DNA of 64,000 nucleotides from Blastocystis hominis. Lineage: Eukaryota > Sar > Bigyra > Opalinata > Blastocystidae. Below the pieces are notes generated by a model. It was given only the letters and a program-made list of their open reading frames with translations. It did no database searches and was not told where the DNA came from. Every line of letters begins with the position of its first letter. Position 1 is the stretch's first letter. The DNA lies in the NCBI RefSeq assembly GCF_000151665.1, contig NW_013171823.1:248001-312000 (forward strand). The letters run 5' to 3'. Position numbers and translations under genes: made by a program. Shown one piece after another: positions 841 through 60,424 of the stretch.

Positions 841-2371
841 ATGGTGAATAGGATGAAGAAACTATTGTGTTTGGTGTTTTTCCTTGTTTTTGTGAATGTA
901 AGCTGTGTCATGGACTGTTTACGTTAGAGTAAGCCTGTTTTTGAAATGGAGAAAGAAGACGTCACATATTATACATCTCACAATAAGACTCTTATTCTGA
1001 AGATGTATATGAACGTAGTTATTGAGTGCGTGCGGCTCAGTATTAGTGGTGCCCTTATTGTAAACGTTTTGCTCCAGTGTTTCAGCAATTGGCTAATTCC
1101 TTTGATGATAAGTACACATCATTATGGAATTTGATTTAGACCTGAAGTTGTTCTGGGTCAAGTGGATTGCCAGCTCAATAAAAGACTGTGCAGTGATTAT
1201 GTCGTGTATGAATATCCCTCAGTTCGACTAGTCAAGCCAGGCGGAGAAATGCTTGCCTATATGGATAAGCTGAATGCTACCCAAATTATGAGTTTCGTGT
1301 ATGGAATGACAGGTTTGTTTTTCATCTGCTATCTTCCTCTCAGGAATCGGTTCTCCTGTAGCTCCTCCTGTCGACCTTCTCACATACCTGTCTCCCGCGG
1401 AGATTCCGGATAAGATAAAGGACAATGGCCATATCAGTGTTATCTATGTGTGGCGTAACGGCGACGACAACACGCAAGGAGCCGAGATCGCGCGTCACTT
1501 AGCGTGGAACTTCCTGGTAGATCCTTTGGTGCAATTCTACCAAACTCCGATGTCGAGCGATCTCCCCAGCTCCGTTCTGAAGGTGATGTCCACTAACTTC
1601 CCTCAATATCTGGTACCATTGCCTGGGCTTTCTTCTCATTTGTAGGTGATTTTCCATGGGAAGGTCAGACGGTACGACGTGGATCCGAGCGACAGCAAGG
1701 AGGATCAGGAAGAAATGCTGCTGGATGTGCTGAATATGTATGCGGGCACCTTCCTGACCATCGACGGAAGCCAGTACTACCCGTCAGGAAGAGACCAGAA
1801 GATGGAGAGCGCGTTGAAGCGAATCAAGACATGGGACAGCAATGGACTGGCGATGATTCGAAGAGCGGTGGAGGAATTGCTGCGGACGAAGACTGAGTTG
1901 AAGGAGAGGTACAACAAGGCGCTGGATCTGCTGGAGAAGGACGGAATGAAAGCGATCTGGAAGAAATGGCACCAGAACCGAAGATTGGTGGAGCAGTTGG
2001 AGGACGATGATCCGAAGCTCGAGGAAGCGGAGATGGAGTGCATGGTACTGAGGTCGCTGACCAAGTATTTGAAGAAGAAGAGTTTGGCAGGACCGGGGAA
2101 GGCAGCAGCGGGTGAAGCGAAGAAAGAGGAGGTGGAGAAGCCAAAGGAAGAGGCTCCAGAGGCTCCAGAGGCTCCAGAGGCTCCAGAGGCTCCAGAGGCT
2201 CCAGAGGCTCCAGAGGCTCCAGAGGCTCCAGAAGCGATGAAAACGGACATTCCTAAAGAGGAAGTGGTGGTCCAGGAGCAAGAGAGAGCTGAAACACCGA
2301 AGGAGGAAGTGGAGAAGCCAAAGGAAGATAGAAAAGCAGAGGAAAAGCAAGAAGAAGAAGAAGAGCTTTGA
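841..2371 (+). CDS. Protein disulfide isomerase-like protein with acidic repeat tail
   Basis: A secretory thioredoxin-fold protein. Five introns (898-927, 1015-1046, 1112-1139, 1313-1343, 1613-1645) restore one frame. The N-terminus is a signal peptide (MKKLLCLVFFLVFVNS). Next is a thioredoxin domain with the redox motif WCPYC in 'WCPYCKRFAPVF', followed by 'GQVDCQLNKRLCSDY' and 'YEYPSVRLVKPG', typical PDI strands. A second thioredoxin-like stretch lacks CxxC, and a helical region with lysine and glutamate runs follows. The tail has about ten Glu-Ala-Pro units from a 9-bp repeat near 2150-2237 and ends in EEEEEL, not a classical KDEL. ATG 814 or 853 could also be the start. Likely role: oxidative folding in the ER. 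The TGA at 2369 has its T exactly five bases before TGTTTGTT. Confidence 0.85.
2150..2237 (+). repeat. 9-bp tandem repeat encoding Glu-Ala-Pro
   Basis: About ten near-perfect copies of GAGGCTCCA inside the PDI tail. The opposite strand reads as long Ser-Gly-Ala or Trp-Ser-Leu ORFs, which are artefacts of this repeat. Confidence 0.9.
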
Positions 2372-2490: not shown

Positions 2491-3460
2491 ATGAGTGTCA
2501 GAAAAGCTCCGTCAGCAAAGTATACAGCTTTGACCGCCACTTGTGCATCGACCGTTACTCAGATGGTAGTTGTTCCATGCGAGACAATCAAAATTCAACT
2601 ACAGGTATGAATTCCTGTTTTGATGGGAATGTAGTTATTTCAGAAGATGAACGGAAAAGGCCAAAGTGCACTTATGAGTAGTTTGCGTTTCATTTATCGG
2701 AATGAAGTATGGAATTAGGAGGACACTTTGACCCAATAGGGATTCTTAGGTTTTTGGAGAGGCTATTTCGTTTCATTATCGTGTAGTTTACCATCATGTG
2801 CTATCTATTACTCTGTTTTCGAAACTCTGCGAAAGTCTCTTTATCGTGAAAGCGAAAAGCATCCTGGGTATGTGCTCCTTGTCCTCTTAACGCAAAGCTT
2901 GCTGCCCTTTATCCCCGCACTTGCTAGTAGCATAGGTCAAACCGTAACTTGTTTGACAACCTCTCCCATTGACCGTTTCCGAACTCAGTTTTGGGCAGAC
3001 CGACACCAAAAAGTGTCTCGCCTGCTAAAATTAACAATCAATCAAGCCAAATCCGAGGGCTTACCGAGCCTGTACCACGGCTTGAAGCCCCTGCTCGTCC
3101 GAGACATTCTCTTTTCTTCGATTTACTGGACATCCTACGAGCGACTTCGCTCCTCCACGCACTCTCTCGGCGCGCCGCCTATCTTCCAGAACTTCATCGC
3201 TGGGTCTGTGGGTGGGATGCTGACCAGCGCCGCCATCACGCCGATCGATCTTGTGAAGACGAGGCAGCAAGTGCTGAACACGAAGGAGAGTATCTGGCAA
3301 ACGCTGCGGTTCATTCAACGGACGGAGGGCGTGCGAGGACTGTTCCGAGGCCTGACGCCGCGTGTGATCCAAACGATGCCTGTAATGTCGATAATGATGA
3401 TTATTTATGATGGACTGAACCGGTTCATTTTGAGCTTGGAGAATGATGATTCCAGTGAGT
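2491..3460 (+). CDS. Mitochondrial carrier, SLC25A39/40 (MTM1)-like
   Basis: A six-helix carrier for the inner membrane of the mitochondrion-related organelle. Introns at 2605-2634, 2707-2739 and 2868-2897 restore the frame. Three carrier signatures are visible: VPCETIKIQLQ, SPIDRFRTQFW and TPIDLVKTRQQ. Each repeat also has the second-half pattern (GFWRGY, SLYHGLKP, GLFRGLTPR). 'LVRDILFSSIYWTSYE' resembles the SLC25A39/40/MTM1 subfamily, which in other eukaryotes is tied to mitochondrial glutathione import; transfer of that function is inference. No genomic stop lies near the expected end: the frame runs on to 3537. The T at 3460 is first in its codon and five bases before TGTTTGTT, so polyadenylation would create TAA there. 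Convergent with the E2 gene. Confidence 0.88.
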
Positions 3461-3485
3461 CGAGTGTTTGTTTGAAAACAGAAGA
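3460..3485. terminator. Shared 3'-end element of two convergent genes
   Basis: On the plus strand TGTTTGTT (3465-3472) follows an in-frame T at 3460. On the minus strand the same segment reads TGTTTTCA (3480-3473), with an in-frame T at 3485 five bases before it. One short element could therefore end both the carrier and the E2 gene and supply both stops. The same composite recurs at 40237-40261. Confidence 0.6.
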
Positions 3486-4119
3486 GAGACGGGGACGAAC
3501 TATCTTGCGGATCTCACCGCACTTGGGGCATTTATAGGTTGTGGACTGCGCGTGAGCACGATGGGAAAACGATACCTTGAGTGCGAGCGAACGAACTTCC
3601 TCATCTGGCGTTTCGATCGATCCGATGGCTCCGGGAGTGGGGACAGGGAACATACTCGAGATTGCAGTGATAATTGTTTCGACTAGGAGTGAGACTGACA
3701 GAGGATTGCGAGTACTCGTCCATGAAGGAGACCACTCCTCTTTGTGGAAGGATGTAATCGTGAGACAGATCTTTTTATTCACCTCAAAACGACCGTTTTC
3801 CTACAAATCACAGAAAACAGCGAGTTGCACTGTAAAAAAGTAAATATCGGGAGGAGACATCGGAAAGTCAGAAGGGAGCACGATCTTTCCATGGTATACA
3901 CCCTTTTCGTAAGGAGTCTCTGTAGGACCTCTTAAAGTGAAATGCCATTCAAAGGAGTTGTTCTATTTCATGAACAGCAAAATCGTAGCAAAAACTGGAA
4001 GAGGAGCAGCATGAAAGTCCGGATTGGTGTTCTTCCGCATCAACTGGATCTCCTACACGTTCACTACACTCTCTGAGGGGTACTTTGTTAATTCGTCCGA
4101 TTGTGATTTTCCGAGACAT
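3485..4119 (-). CDS. Ubiquitin-conjugating enzyme E2, UBE2J/Ubc6 family
   Basis: An E2 of the ER-associated degradation type. Introns (plus coordinates 4053-4083, 3963-3995, 3801-3830, 3683-3715, 3546-3575) give one frame. The fold is clear: an N-terminal helix, then 'FEWHFTLRGPTETPYEKGVY', 'FPMSPPDIYF', 'ENGRFEVNKKICLTITSFH' with the active-site Cys, and 'GAIGSIETPDEEVRSLAL', as in Ubc6/UBE2J. After the core comes a CPKCGE segment. The membrane anchor usual for this family is not seen, so the protein may be soluble or anchored by a partner. The end is uncertain: a genomic TAA lies at 3405, but an in-frame T at 3485 precedes TGTTTTCA with the same spacing as other polyadenylation-made stops. 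Confidence 0.85.
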
Positions 4120-4208: not shown

Positions 4209-5140
4209 ATGGAAAAGGAGCAAATATTAGGAGATATGAAGCCTACTGAAGCTTGGACAGAGGATTCATGGGATCCCTAGTAGAATTGGGCGGCTTGCCT
4301 GACTTGTGTAGTAAATATACTGCGGAAAAGAGAAAGGAGATCTTGAGTACCATGAGTAAGAAAGCTCGGGAAGAGCAAAAGAAGTTGGAAGTAGCTTTTT
4401 GTCTTTGGAGACTGAGGGATAGGAAGCGAGAAAGAAGGAGGAGGAGGAGCGAAAGCAGCAGGAACTAAAGGAGGAAGTACAAGTCTTGCCTTGTTTTACT
4501 ATTGTAGCTTGAAAGAAAGCAGAAAGAGGAAAAGGAAAAGCAAAGCAAGAAAGAGAATGAGAAGAAGAAGAAAGATAAGAAGAAAAACGACACGCTGATC
4601 CCCACCTACACAAAAGCAGAGCTGAAGCGTGCGGAAGCGATAAGACGAGAGAAGCAGCGTGAGAGAGATATCAAAAGAAACGGTATATCCTGTGTGTTTT
4701 TGGAAGTTGATTTCTAGAAGAGGCAAAAGAGAAGGAGCGCGAGATGGAGGAGGCGATGCTGGCAGAGTCTGCTGCGGAATCCGCTTCCTCAGCCTCTACT
4801 GCCGAGGAGGAGTACAAAGTGGACCAGTCGGCTCATTGGTGTCCGTTGTTCGTCGGCTTCTTGGTGGTTGTCCTGCTGTTCGTGCTGGTGGTTCGCTTGT
4901 TTCCGACCTACCGCCTGGTGCTGGATGTCCCGTATGGCTCGCTGAAAGCGTTCTATGAGCTGGTGGACCGAATGAAGGGCGTGTATGGGTCTCGCCTGGT
5001 GCTCAGCGAGATGGACGACCGCGTTCCCGAGAAGGTGAAGCAGCTCTATTTCCAGATTAGTTTCTCGAAGTTCAGCGAACTCTGCGATTTCTATCTTTCG
5101 CCGTGGTTCAAGCATCTGGTCCACTACTACTGGATGGATT
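4209..5140 (+). CDS. Charged coiled-coil protein with one membrane helix, unknown function
   Basis: I do not recognise the family. Introns at 4280-4311, 4391-4422, 4477-4507 and 4683-4717 join a long Lys/Glu-rich N-terminal half, likely coiled coil, to an acidic linker, one hydrophobic segment (FVGFLVVVLLFVLVVRLF) and a folded-looking region of about 80 residues ending HYYWMD. The layout suggests a single-pass membrane protein with a large charged domain on one side. The reading frame is open to 5385, but that stretch is antisense to the cathepsin gene. The likely end is the T at 5140, first in its codon and five bases before TGTTTGTT (5145-5152), giving TAA on polyadenylation. Exon 1 is the least certain part. 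Confidence 0.65.
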
Positions 5141-5144
5141 GTTG

Positions 5145-5152
5145 TGTTTGTT
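5145..5152 (+). terminator. TGTTTGTT 3'-end element
   Basis: Follows in-frame T 5140 by four bases. The next genomic stop in frame is at 5383-5385, inside the oppositely oriented protease gene. Confidence 0.75.
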
Positions 5153-5173
5153 GCAAACAGAGAAAGACAGATT

Positions 5174-6955
5174 TCAGAAGTCGATCACTGGCACTCCCCA
5201 AGTGCACATCTGCTCGATGTTCAGCAGGTTCTGACCCATCGCAATCCGGAACCAGCCATTCTCGCCCCAATACGTGCCCCAGCTGTTGCGAACGATCCAG
5301 TAGGGCGTTCTCGTCTCCTCGTCCACTCCCCAACCAGTCACTTCCACGGCGTGCTTACCCAGCCACTTGCCTTCTCGGCTTGTGAACACTCCGCCCGTGT
5401 AGTCCAGGAAGGTCTGCGTCACGTCCATCACACAGCTGATGGGACCTCGCGCGTAGATCTCGGCCTGCATGTGCGCAGCGTCCTTCACGTAGCCGTACTC
5501 GCTCACCTTCACGCGGCGATACTCCTCGACAGCGAAGCAAGGCTCGTCCGGCCAGCAGTTTTTGCATCGATTGATGGGCTCGCAGTACTTATCGATCGCC
5601 TCGTACACCGCGCAGGTCTGATCGGGGATTCCCTCGCGGTAGGCGTAGGAATACACCACATCAGGAAGGCCGCCATGGCAAGAACCGCCTCCCGAGCAGT
5701 TGATGACTTCCTGCTCGGAGAGGTTGATCGTCGGCCACTTGCCCTTGCGCATCAGGTTGATTCGGTCCGACAGCGCGGAGGTGGGAGCCTGCGCCCAGCA
5801 CGATCCGCAGTAATGAGGAATGTGCTGGTTCTTGTCCCACGTCGCGTAGTTATAGCCGTCAATGTTGCGGATATCGTAGCTCGTCGGAAGATCCTCCGTC
5901 TTGATGTAGGTGTGCGGAAGCGGCGATTTGATCACTTCCTCCATTTCCTTTCGGCTCTCTATCAATGAGTCCCCACACATAGACACCGACCCAGCACGCA
6001 GCCTTGAGGGAAGTAGTTGATTCTGTGCTTGACTCCCAGCGAGACAGGGTTCGTGATCTTCTCCTCAGGGATCCGAGGAATACCGTAGGTGCATCCCTCT
6101 TCGATTCCCAGATTGTTTTTGCCGCGCACAATCCGGAAGAAGCCCTCCTCGCCCCAGTAGGTTCCCCAGCTGTTGCGAACGATCCAGTAAGGAATTCCGT
6201 TCTCCTCGCCCCATCCCACGACGCTGATATCGTGGCCATCGCCGGCAATTCCGGTCTTGTCTTCATAGATTCCTCCCTTGTACTCCAGGAGATCGTCGGG
6301 AACGTCGATCGAGCAGGTGACAGGTCCATGCGCGTAGATTTCCTTCATGATGTTCTCCACGCCCTCCACATGGCCGTACTCCTCCACGTAGTACTTCGTG
6401 TAGTTATGCACCGCCCAGCAACTCTCCGCATCGCAATTCTGGCAGATGTGAATGTCGTCACACACTTCGTTGTCACGAGCCTCGTAGCGCTGGCAACCCT
6501 CTTCGGGGATTCCCACCTCGTTCGCATACTGGTAAATGTGAATGGGCAAACCTCCATGGCAACCATTATCGATCTCTGAGCAATACAGAATTACTTGGAT
6601 CGAGAGGTCGTGCTCAGGCCAGACATTCTTTGTCATGTATTTCAAACGATCAGTAATAGAAGAGGTGGCAGCGTGCGCCCAACAAGATCCGCAGTACTGA
6701 GGAATGTGCTGATTACGGGCAAGAGAGACATAGCTCTTTCCATCGATGTTTCGCCTATTTCTCAGCCAAGCGAGAAATAATATACAAATCGAAGTTTTTG
6801 GGAAGTTCCTCCGTCTTGATTACATCCCAGGCATGCGGATTCTTTACGAGTTCCTCTCGAATCACATCGGGCTTCCAAGCCAAAGCAATCGTCAGGACCA
6901 ACACTAGTCATTATCAATATCAATTGTAGGTACACAAAATGCAATTACGGATCAT
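5174..6955 (-). CDS. Tandem two-domain cathepsin Z (X)-like cysteine protease
   Basis: A secreted or lysosomal papain-family protease with two complete cathepsin Z-like domains in one frame, about 560 residues. Exon 1 and exon 2 make a signal peptide (MIRNCILLLVLTIALA). Domain 1 has NQHIPQYCGSCWAHA (catalytic Cys), DGHDISVVGWG (His) and YWIVRNSWGTYWG (Asn). Domain 2 has NQHIPHYCGSCWAQA, GKHAVEVTGWG and YWIVRNSWGTYWG. Introns lie at plus 6904-6933, 6755-6785 and 5959-5990. The last one joins the two domains in phase: no start signal peptide and no 3'-end motif is seen between them, and the second domain keeps a short propeptide-like linker (ESRKEMEEVIKSPLPH). Ends in TGA at 5174. Two adjacent genes remain possible. 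Confidence 0.85.
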
Positions 6956-23528: not shown

Positions 23529-24984
23529 AATCCTCAATAGCCCGATAAAATAACATGTAAGGTGCGCACTGTAATACTTCCTGGAAACTAACTTCTCTTA
23601 TGACATCGTCGTTGCAGCAAATCCATCCCCTATCGAAACGATAACAATACGCTAGATAGTGTCCATGCATCAAATCGTTTCCAATATGGCTAATTACCTA
23701 CAATTCACGGCTATTCCATATTTCAACAGCAAAAAGTTCATATTTTTCATATTTTAACGTCGAAACACTTGGGTACTCCGCAATGGACAGGTTCTTTTCA
23801 AAGCGAATCGTCTTTCGAATTTTCTCCAGACTTGCGAGTTTCCGGTTATAAGTAAAACGAAGCAGATGGAGAACCAGACAGGGAGGCGACTGTTCGAAGG
23901 AATACCCCATCCCCTACCCATGAGCCGAGCGAACTGGGTTTACATCTCTCGCTCCACGCAAAAAGGCGCGCAAAGCGTCCTCCACCGAAGTAATCTACGC
24001 TTCAACCGAATTGCTGTGCGCTACTCCCGCTCCAATGATAGGAAGAGACAGCGTGATATACGATTGCATTTCGATGTGATCTCTTTTCGAGCGCAGCGCG
24101 GTCTAGCTTTCAAAAAACCTCACCGTTCTCACATTTCTGCGCAGCTGGGTTTCAAATAACGAGTTAATGAGCGAAGTGTCCATGACAGAGCGCGTTAAGA
24201 GCACGCTCCGACCTCCATTTCCCACTTCCTCCCATTCTCCATCCGAATTGTCGGTGTGGGGTATCTCAGTCAGAGATGCCACTTCTTTGGAGATTTCTTC
24301 CATCAGAAACAGAAAGAATTCCTGGACATCGGATTGCTCGCCAGCAAACATGCAATTCCGAACGGCGAATACTAAGGAATCACAGGTTCGTGACATACTC
24401 ACACTCCCGTAGCTCCTGAAGATTCACGCGAGGCTTCCTTTTGTCTTCCTTCCATTTTTCCTCGGCTTTCTTCATAACCGCGATCAAGCGGAAAAGCAGA
24501 GTTAATAAAGGGAGATTGGGATTATCCACACCTTTCGATATGGAACACATATTCGAAAGTAATTTAAAGAGAGGAGGACAATGCAAAATGCACTAATAAT
24601 CACAATGAAAGAGGAACAAACCTGGATAACGCTATTTTGATAACAGTTGTTGCATTCGTTAACCAGTCCAACGGTTTTGTACTCCGACATTACAGAAGAA
24701 TCGGTTAGCTTGTCTTCATTTTGTAATATTGTAGTCACATCGTTAGCTACAGCAGAAATGTAGTCTCTCAATAGATTTTGAACCCCATTTACAGAAAGAT
24801 TCTCTTCCTGTGATTGAAATCGAATATCGTATTCTTGGAATGCTTTTGTTTCATAACTAGCACTAATAGGAGAGACAGAATTCTCTGGTGAAGGAGGTAC
24901 TTTCGGACGATTGCTTTTCAAAATATGGCTACTCCCCTTTGATAACCAAGGATTAGTAAACTTTTTGGGTGCCTCCTCTGACAT
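23529..24984 (-). CDS. Ubiquitin-specific protease (USP/C19)
   Basis: A deubiquitinating cysteine protease. The Cys box is GLVNECNNCYQNSVIQ (family: GL.N.GNTCYMNS.LQ), with Gly-Asn changed to Glu-Cys before the CNNCY core. Next are FAGEQSDVQEFFLFLMEEI, the C-terminal PCLVLHLLRFTYNRK, and the His box HIGNDLMHGHYLAYCYRFD with WICCNDD. Seven introns of 28-31 nt are implied, including plus 24593-24621 and 24401ff; each joins in phase. The zinc-binding CxxC pairs of the fingers are not seen. The genomic frame reads through the motif to TAG, but the T at 23529 is first in its codon and lies five bases before TGTTTGTT, so the protein probably ends AIED with a polyadenylation-made TAA. Confidence 0.85.
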
Positions 24985-58548: not shown

Positions 58549-58705
58549 ACTCCTCGACTGATACAAACGATTGACTAACAAACACTCCAAACCTCACTAG
58601 TTTCCACAACGTTATACCCCTGATTCCTCGCAAACCCCCAAAACTCCATCCAGTTCCAGAAGAAGCCCTTGTCATACGGGTTTCGAAAGTGTCCATTCTA
58701 CATCA

Positions 58706-60424
58706 TCACAGCAACTCCATCAATTCCACCTGGTCCTGCATATACGGATAATGTCTCCAGTTAATCGACTCATTCGTGGTGTAATTCCGACTCACCTGCC
58801 ACAACTGTCTCAACAGCAGCTGCACGCAGAACACTCCCAGCCACGCCAGCAGCGAAAAAAAGCCCGCAATTCCGGCAATCAGCAGCACATCCCGCGATTC
58901 CCGAAGCGACACTTTTAAAGCTCCTCCTACGACTCATCGACCGCGCACAATCTCACGTCGAACAAGATCTTGGAGAATGTAAAAAACGAGCGTGATCTGC
59001 ACCGTGCAGCTACCAAGAAACAGCAGAAAAACGCGGTGACTGCGAGTGAACCGCTCCCTTCGTCCTCACTTTTTGTATCCCACGCAGTTGTTCAGCCAGC
59101 CACAGTGGTGATCCATGCGGAACACACACTTGTTGCAGCGGGAACAGTGTTTGCACCGCCGAATCCGCTCGATTTCGCACGTGGAGCAAAGTCCTTCCGT
59201 CGAAACGCGCTCTCCGGCCATGATTTCGATGTACGTTTGCTTGAGATCGACATTGCTAAACGGAGAGGCCTGCAGTTTCCCGCGGGAATCGACGGCCCAG
59301 CCAGGATCGGAGAAGGAGAGATAGATCCAGAGAAGGAAATTGATGATGGTGGCGAAAACGTAAAGAGTGGAAGGGGTGGAAAGCGAGGGAACCGCGAACA
59401 TTCCGAGAAAGGAAAGAACGAAAAGACCGAGAATCAGCACGCAAGGGAAGAGCAGAAAGGCGAAATAGTGGTTAATAAAGTCTTGAAACTCGTAAAGAAT
59501 TCGATGGTATTGGAATTGGCGTAACAACCGAAGTGTTTTTCGCAAGTTTCGCACGTTTCCACCGAAGTGTTCGATTGGGTATTCTTTCATCGCCTTTGAG
59601 TCAACAAACAATCAAAACAATGCTTCCAGCGGCGTCCGCACCGCGAAATCCACCGTGCGCACCAACTGCGGACCGTACCGCGAGTCTAGAATTCGTTTTG
59701 TGATGGTGGGAGCTGCGGAGCACGCCGCCCAGTGCAACGCCGTACGACCCGAACTGTCCTGGTCGAGAATGCGAGCGCGGTGGCGAAGAAGCCAATCAAA
59801 TGCCTAAGGATCGAGTGTGTGGATGGGATGGACGATGATGTTGTCGTCGAGACACGCCAGCATTAGAGGCGTTCGGCCTTTGTTGTCGCGAACATCGAGA
59901 TTGGCCTTCTTTAGGTAGAGCATCGAGAGGACGGTCGCATGGCCGTGCATTGCGGCGATATGAATAGGAGTAAAACCCTTTTTGTCTCGGGCATCGATTT
60001 TCGCGCCGTGTTGAAGACATAAACCCACTGGACATCAAACCACGAACAGGAGGGGTACCGATATTCACATTACCAACTTCGGCTGCAACATGAAGCGAGT
60101 TTTGTGACTGCGAGTTGAGTTGGTTCACATTGGCACCAGAAGCGATCAAATACGATGCAATATCAAATTTGTTCTGTTTTATTACCTATATATATCACCA
60201 ACATCCTGGCAAATACATAATGCAACAGGGGAAGTCCTTCGATCACAATAACCGCTTTCGCATCAACATTCCTTTTAACCTATACCGTAAGACAGAACCA
60301 AACACAAAAATACAAACTCCAAATCACACTTGATAATTGCAGTTTGCAACTCAGTGTACTGACTATTCGTTGCAACGTCACTGTCAGAACCCGAATCGTT
60401 AAAGGAATCGATTCCCTTGTCCAT
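58706..60424 (-). CDS. Ankyrin-repeat DHHC palmitoyltransferase
   Basis: HIP14/Akr1-type enzyme that attaches palmitate to Cys. N-terminus MDKGIDSFNDSGSDSDVATN; ankyrin repeats ASGANVNQLNSQSQNSLHVA, GAKIDARDKKGFTPIHIAAM, ANLDVRDNKGRTPLMLACLD and QDSSGRTALHWAA. Two hydrophobic helices follow, then the Cys-rich domain CSTCEIERIRRCKHCSRCNK and 'CVFRMDHHCGWLNNCVG' (DHHC), then two more helices and NYTTNESINW (TTxE motif). Introns include 50, 43 and 41 nt in the ankyrin part and 30 nt after DHHC (from 59065) and before SLRESRD. The ankyrin-DHHC order is conserved across eukaryotes. TGA at 58706. Confidence 0.87.

What the first reader, a model, noticed from the sequence alone, without database searches (positions are those of the whole stretch)
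3440..3480. Stop codon of the SLC25 gene appears to be made by polyadenylation
Seen: the carrier frame has no genomic stop at its expected end; T 3460 is codon position 1 and is followed by CGAG-TGTTTGTT. Known: in Blastocystis some mRNAs gain UAA/UGA from the poly(A) tail upstream of TGTTTGTT. Inference: cleavage after 3460 gives TAA. Four more genes in the window show the same T-N4-TGTTTGTT geometry (5140, 23529, 33979, 55404), each with the T in frame. The constancy of both spacing and phase is hard to get by chance.
Basis: partly seen in the sequence, partly recalled or inferred. Interest (0 to 1): 0.75.

Follow-up and report, generated by a model that had tools for sequence, protein, structure and literature searches.

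The report
Stop codons completed by poly(A) tails
In this gut protist (Blastocystis) a transporter gene and the gene facing it both lack stop codons in the DNA and very probably get them from the poly(A) tail, a known trick of this organism; the two genes' tail signals sit back to back in about 24 bases, an arrangement that recurs far more often in the genome than chance would give.

Summary
At all five places named, an in-frame T lies exactly four bases before an exact TGTTTGTT, with no genomic stop there.

Frame statistics without transcripts recover the rule: a stop is made in 15 of 19 open coding frames at offset -5; random frames reach this once in 20,000. Relatives of the SLC25 protein end near the same place or keep compatible in-frame geometry.

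Less expected: the gene facing SLC25 is a UBE2J/Ubc6-type E2. Its frame also has no stop and meets T-N4-TGTTTTCA at 3485; the predicted 159-residue protein ends where the 159-residue ST1 protein ends. Two stops thus seem to be made on either side of one 24-base spacer. Genome-wide, convergent exact motif pairs 0-6 bases apart number 58, against 6 at 20-26 bases and 2 in opposite order. I infer a shared bidirectional poly(A) element. No transcript data were available.

The parts
2491..3460 (+). SLC25-type mitochondrial carrier gene; predicted exons 2491-2604, 2644-2706, 2740-2867, 2898-3460; 289 residues; stop made from T3460 plus poly(A)
   Evidence: (Mito_carr, three stretches, E 1e-53); intron borders inferred from GT-AG, frame and relatives
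3460..3460 (+). predicted cleavage base of the SLC25 mRNA, codon position 1
3465..3472 (+). downstream element TGTTTGTT of the SLC25 gene
3473..3480 (-). degenerate downstream element TGTTTTCA (3 mismatches) of the facing E2 gene
   Evidence: of nine candidates with 3 mismatches on this strand in 3300-3560 (none had fewer), the only one with the TGTTT core; three candidates have T at -5
3461..3484 (.). 24-base spacer between the two predicted mRNA ends, holding both elements
3485..4119 (-). UBE2J/Ubc6-type E2 gene; predicted exons 4119-4084, 4052-3996, 3962-3831, 3800-3716, 3682-3576, 3545-3486 plus T3485; 159 residues; introns 31, 33, 30, 33, 30 bases
4711..5140 (+). last exon frame of a membrane-like protein gene, stop made from T5140
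5145..5159 (.). overlapping convergent elements TGTTTGTTGCAAACA: TGTTTGTT on + and TGTTTGCA (2 mismatches) on -
5164..5776 (-). 3' part of a papain-family protease gene with an ordinary genomic TGA (5176-5174), predicted cleavage base T5164
   Evidence: Peptidase_C1, E 5.9e-39
23529..23697 (-). last exon frame of a ubiquitin hydrolase (UCH) gene, stop made from T23529
33979..34177 (-). last exon frame resembling the C-terminus of phosphoserine phosphatase (weak, E 0.002), stop made from T33979
55404..56184 (-). open frame with MORN repeat (24 bits, cut-off 22.5), stop made from T55404
16711..16879 (-). further candidate: 56-codon frame, T16711 in phase 1, no Pfam match
58589..58697 (-). further, tentative candidate: last exon of an ankyrin/DHHC gene, T58589 in phase 1

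Best explanation
The window is Blastocystis nuclear DNA. Pre-mRNA is cut four bases before a UGUUUGUU-type downstream element and the poly(A) tail turns the in-frame terminal U into UAA. At the SLC25 gene this happens after T3460. The facing UBE2J-type E2 gene very probably does the same after T3485, so two convergent genes without genomic stops end on either side of a 24-base spacer that holds both elements back to back. I infer that such back-to-back pairs act as compact bidirectional poly(A) elements that let convergent genes abut without overlapping mRNAs. Shown here: the geometry, the phase statistics, the enrichment of convergent pairs at 0-6 bases, coding frames converging on the pairs examined, and relatives ending at matching places. 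Inferred: actual cleavage at these bases, use of the degenerate TGTTTTCA, and function of the pair as one unit.
For: Geometry. Offset peak at -5 in 15 of 19 open frames and frame shuffles. SLC25 relatives. E2 gene: match to UBE2J2 and Ubc6 structures; predicted length 159 and end KIVRPRL against ST1 protein P0021 of 159 residues ending KIIRPRM. Conserved convergent order: 94-residue tail of P0008 aligns with the strand opposite the E2 gene, 3466-3744. Exact convergent pairs: 58 at 0-6 bases, 15 at 7-19, 6 at 20-26, 2 in opposite order at 0-6; at least 4 of the 58 (50 of 58 seen in the listing) and about half of the 15 are registers of tandem runs; independent placement predicts about 5 per 7 spacings. 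Core pairs TGTTTG-CAAACA: 456 at 0-10, 71 at 20-30, 35 in opposite order. In 20 pairs (of 58) fetched, coding frames with a stop converge from both sides in 10 of 20 at score 5, against 49 of 2000 random places and 6 of 81 single-motif places; the top reading of 40 sides was genomic stop 21, poly(A)-made 13, converted 1, no stop 1, too weak 4; both sides poly(A)-made in L029, L035 and, weakly on one side, L036. Published reporter test: mutating the motif and two upstream Ts cut expression 324-fold (PMC6395660, passages).
Against: No transcript evidence for any site here. The E2 gene's element has three mismatches; Klimes found three or more mismatches and/or altered spacing in only about 4% of genes. 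Its last exon is short and codon usage alone scores only 2.4, under my cut-off. Another place with the same TGTTTTCA opposite an exact motif (40242) shows no stop on the opposite side. Of the six Blastocystis-like E2 relatives shown, only P0021 supports the end; P0022 and P0024 end differently and P0023 and P0025 are read-through translations. P0004 lacks the C-terminal block of the carrier altogether. In the 20 pairs only 23 of 40 sides have T at -5. Enrichment of pairs could partly be passive: compact convergent genes bring their elements together.
Confidence: 0.85

Rival explanations
1. The SLC25 frame is simply read through to the genomic TAG, giving a protein 25 residues longer.
For: The frame is open to TAG, and a metagenome prediction (P0001) carries that extension.
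Against: The tail contains the exact element; four of nine relatives that reach NRFIL end before it; the tail matches in another frame in P0007, and in P0008 it matches the antisense of the E2 gene while the window's frame has stops. P0001 appears to read TAG as Q, so it is a mechanical prediction.
Confidence: 0.06
2. A further intron carries the frame past the motif to a normal stop codon in a downstream exon.
For: Introns here are short (30-39 bases) and an annotated B. hominis protein (P0122) for the 5140 gene ends in a way that an intron 4918-4948 would produce (reading).
Against: That model removes a C-terminus conserved in four non-identical relatives, the artefact described by Klimes. 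The carrier domain is already complete.
Confidence: 0.05
3. Back-to-back motif pairs are a passive result of gene compaction, with two independent unidirectional sites and no joint function.
For: Each element alone explains its own gene; a downstream element by nature lies between convergent genes. Pairs of many forms occur, not one fixed palindrome.
Against: The excess is confined to 0-6 bases; at 7-19 and 20-26 bases counts fall to near the chance level. Compaction alone should give a broader decay, though selection for minimal length could sharpen it.
Confidence: 0.45
4. The E2 gene does not end at 3485 but reads on, overlapping the SLC25 exon, to the genomic TAA near 3403.
For: The frame is open to there and only a degenerate element lies at 3473-3480.
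Against: ST1 P0021 ends at the homologous residue with the same total length; in 3300-3400 on that strand only three candidates with 3 mismatches occur, none with T at -5.
Confidence: 0.12

Closest known systems
Polyadenylation-made termination codons of Blastocystis nuclear genes (Klimes et al. 2014, PMC4159000; Gentekaki et al. 2017, PMC5608401)
   Same: Same organism group, same TGTTTGTT element, same four-base spacing, T completed to UAA, false introns in older annotation.
   Different: These loci are not named in the parts I saw. A find for convergent, overlap, palindrom, bidirectional, inverted and opposite (or opposite strand) returned no occurrence in PMC4159000 and only overlap in PMC5608401, so I saw no description of back-to-back element pairs.
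Mitochondrial UAA completion, and PAY* of mammalian genes (as described in Klimes 2014)
   Same: Poly(A) supplies one or two As of a stop codon.
   Different: Mitochondrial in one case; in PAY* an internal Tyr codon is converted in an alternative isoform. Here it is the only stop near the end of the gene.
Shared polyadenylation region of convergent gene pairs in Arabidopsis (PMC3032780; title and start of abstract only)
   Same: Sense and antisense genes using a common 3' region.
   Different: There overlapping long antisense transcripts; here predicted mRNA ends separated by 24 bases with no overlap, and stops made by the tail.
Bidirectional poly(A) signals such as that of SV40 (recalled, no call)
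   Same: One short DNA segment serving 3' ends on both strands.
   Different: Element lies downstream of cleavage and no AAUAAA is involved (absence of a conserved upstream motif per Klimes).

Membership tests
Blastocystis genes with poly(A)-made stop codon | coding frame without a complete genomic stop up to the cleavage base | tested here: met
   five of five named sites
Blastocystis genes with poly(A)-made stop codon | TGTTTGTT (up to two substitutions) exactly four bases downstream | tested here: met
   exact at the five named sites; for the E2 gene on the facing strand NOT met in this strict form (three mismatches), only in the roughly 4% tail reported by Klimes
Blastocystis genes with poly(A)-made stop codon | terminal T, TA or TG in frame so that the tail gives UAA or UGA | tested here: met
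   T at codon position 1 in five of five, and at 3485
Blastocystis genes with poly(A)-made stop codon | EST or RNA-seq read with the poly(A) junction | not testable with these tools
   no transcript data held
Blastocystis genes with poly(A)-made stop codon | organism is Blastocystis | tested here: met
   best named relatives of the genes are Blastocystis; motif density 25 in 64 kb against published 1 per about 2.8 kb in ST7; genome size 18.7 Mb
SLC25 mitochondrial carriers | three Mito_carr repeats | tested here: met
   three stretches, E 1e-53
UBE2J/Ubc6 E2 enzymes | UBC fold with UBE2J/Ubc6-like sequence | tested here: met
   UQ_con E 6.8e-19; best structures UBE2J2 and Ubc6
UBE2J/Ubc6 E2 enzymes | C-terminal membrane anchor (recalled as usual for the family) | tested here: not met
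   neither the 159-residue form nor the read-through tail shows one on reading; the ST1 protein lacks it too. So UBE2J-like E2, not a full tail-anchored member
bidirectional poly(A) element | one segment directs 3' ends on both strands | tested here: inconclusive
   sequence arrangement and converging frames only

The most novel reading that the evidence does not exclude
Blastocystis uses a class of compact bidirectional poly(A) elements, two UGUUUGUU-type downstream elements head to head within 0-6 bases, at some hundreds of convergent gene pairs; at some of them, SLC25/E2 in this window and L029 and L035 elsewhere, the same short segment creates the stop codons of both genes, so that about 24 bases replace two stop codons, two 3' UTRs and the intergenic region.
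Probability: 0.6. Interest if true: 0.55.

Novelty: new variant of a known kind. Interest (0 to 1): 0.42.

Why it matters
The poly(A)-made stop is known, so the five loci mainly help correct gene models: the 5140 gene has an annotated B. hominis protein that lacks its conserved C-terminus. The paired arrangement matters more. It shows how far 3' ends can shrink when the signal lies downstream of the cut and is read with single-base precision, and it makes testable whether one short palindrome can end and complete two genes at once. It also gives annotators a simple rule for separating convergent genes whose models overlap.

Tried and rejected
Reversed-pattern control of the genome search for TGTTTGTT (5,456 against 7,304): not a clean control, since a T before the motif (56% of sites) creates the reversed word; I used shuffles and spacing controls instead. 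Two-mismatch scan of reverse elements around the 81 local motifs: 22 at offsets 3-20 against 11 at 21-45, suggestive but noisy, replaced by whole-genome exact counts. Pfam on the 143-residue exon gave only EssA below its cut-off, taken as chance. Pfam found nothing for the 33979, 16711 and 58589 pieces. Paper searches for bidirectional or convergent poly(A) signals listed 20 and 15 papers and no relevant Blastocystis paper; other searches listed only the known ones on this subject; absence from print is claimed only for these searches, in an open-licence library.

Full report
What was checked. All five have the stated geometry and phase. The window holds 25 exact motifs against 2.85 expected from shuffles.

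Is it more than chance? A codon-usage model was trained on 68 long open frames (genes of the window are among them). Where upstream coding frame was clear, 26 sites, 7 had an ordinary genomic stop before the cleavage base, 15 of the other 19 received a stop at offset -5, and 4 received none. Offsets other than -4 gave at most 7. Random frames reach 15 once in 20,000. The 15 include 5 genomic TGA codons that become UAA; without these it is 10 of 14. So the sequence alone recovers the published rule, with exceptions: 51874, C1 175943, C1 120824 and C1 97046 have frames that get no stop, and some may be motifs inside genes.

Known ground. Klimes 2014 (parts 1-2 of 3 read) reports 372 of 2,419 ST7 genes with poly(A)-made stops, 90 converted stops, and the motif at exactly four bases with up to two substitutions in 2,333 of 2,419. 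Gentekaki 2017 (passages) reports 26% of ST1 genes. Li 2014 (passages) independently places UGUUUG(UU) at the fourth base downstream. The transfection paper PMC6395660 (passages) shows that mutating the motif and two upstream Ts cuts reporter expression 324-fold.

The SLC25 gene. With three introns of 39, 33 and 30 bases it gives 289 residues and three Mito_carr stretches, the last ending at residue 280. Twenty proteins matched; I fetched the best 11. Nine reach the NRFIL block. Four end 1 to 8 residues beyond it (P0002 from ST1, labelled partial; P0003; P0005; P0006); this gene's prediction is 9 residues. Five (P0001, P0007, P0008, P0010, P0011) continue with an in-frame V-C pair, as T-N4-TGTTTGTT in phase 1 would encode; P0001 is near-identical to the window and P0008 and P0010 share a tail, so these are fewer than five independent cases. 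P0004 and P0009 do not reach the block. The P0008 tail aligns with + strand 3466-3744, opposite the E2 gene, where the window's frame has two stops; the P0007 tail aligns in another frame. Nothing suggests that the tail is translated.

The facing gene. The minus strand 4119-3485 encodes an E2 of the UBE2J/Ubc6 type: best structures UBE2J2 (1.3e-34) and Ubc6 (9e-29) (query with one intron wrongly retained). Correctly spliced it has five introns of 30-33 bases and 159 residues up to T3485, which is codon position 1 and is followed by CTTC and TGTTTTCA. The ST1 protein P0021 has 159 residues and ends KIIRPRM where this one ends KIVRPRL. This is the best single piece of evidence for a second poly(A)-made stop. 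Against it stand the three mismatches in the element, the low codon-usage score of 2.4, and other relatives that do not settle the point (P0022 and P0024 end differently). The two predicted mRNA ends, 3460 and 3485, are separated by 24 bases holding both elements. The order SLC25 then E2, tail to tail, is kept in the relative behind P0008.

A second pair lies at 5145-5159, TGTTTGTTGCAAACA. The + gene has a poly(A)-made stop at 5140, with YWMD-xxVC kept in four non-identical relatives. The - gene is a papain-family protease (Peptidase_C1, E 5.9e-39) with an ordinary TGA at 5176-5174 and a predicted cut after T5164. The annotated B. hominis protein P0122 for the + gene ends FPTYRLRSMSWWTE; by my reading this fits a false 31-base intron 4918-4948.

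Genome-wide pairs. Exact convergent pairs TGTTTGTT-N-AACAAACA: 58 at N 0-6, 15 at 7-19, 6 at 20-26, and 2 in the opposite order at 0-6. Per spacing this is about 8.3, 1.2, 0.9 and 0.3; independent placement of 3,601 and 3,703 motifs in 18.7 Mb predicts about 0.7 (hand calculation). Some counts are registers of tandem runs: 4 of the 50 places listed for 0-6, 6 of 15, and 2 of 6. Core pairs TGTTTG-N-CAAACA: 456 at 0-10, 71 at 20-30, 35 in opposite order, an excess of about 400, not corrected for tandem runs. In 20 of the 58 pairs (first listed, tandem run left out) the top reading of 40 sides was genomic stop 21, poly(A)-made 13, converted 1, no stop 1, weak 4; T stood at -5 in 23 of 40. Coding frames with a stop converge from both sides in 10 of 20 at score 5 (14 of 20 at score 3), against 49 of 2000 (207 of 2000) random places and 6 of 81 (16 of 81) single-motif places. 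Both sides are poly(A)-made in L029 and L035 and, weakly on one side, in L036; L044 has one converted and one made.

Interpretation. Because the signal lies downstream of the cut and is read at single-base precision, two convergent genes need only 4+8+(0 to a few)+8+4 bases between their last coding bases. Whether the pair acts as one unit or as two independent sites cannot be told from sequence. I found no description of such pairs in the papers and searches named, in an open-licence library.

Verdict. Observation confirmed; interpretation supported and already known; the paired, bidirectional arrangement is a variant that I did not find in print.

Noticed in passing
window 4918-4948 (+): Annotated B. 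hominis protein P0122 fits a false 31-base intron here that removes the conserved C-terminus of the gene ending at 5140 (reading).
   Followed up: partly
window 59603-59610 (-): Exact TGTTTGTT inside an ankyrin/DHHC gene (DHHC E 1e-16; Ank below cut-off), next to an in-frame TGA; may lie in a 30-base GC-AG intron. A cut four bases upstream would give no stop in that frame.
   Followed up: partly
window 2369, 43214, 41611: Genomic TGA at the cleavage T would be converted to UAA; 41611 has only 13 open codons.
   Followed up: partly
downstream of exact motifs, 264 kb sample: Positions +10 to +15 after the motif start are A-rich (41-57% A against 28%), partly but perhaps not wholly from reverse elements.
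   Followed up: no
window 2158-2235 (+): In-frame PEA tripeptide repeat near the end of the gene that ends at 2369.
   Followed up: no
window 3485-4119 (-): The UBE2J-like E2 shows no membrane anchor on reading, in this genome and in ST1 P0021.
   Followed up: no
G000:C4:192615-192648: Two + strand motifs and one - strand motif within 34 bases.
   Followed up: no
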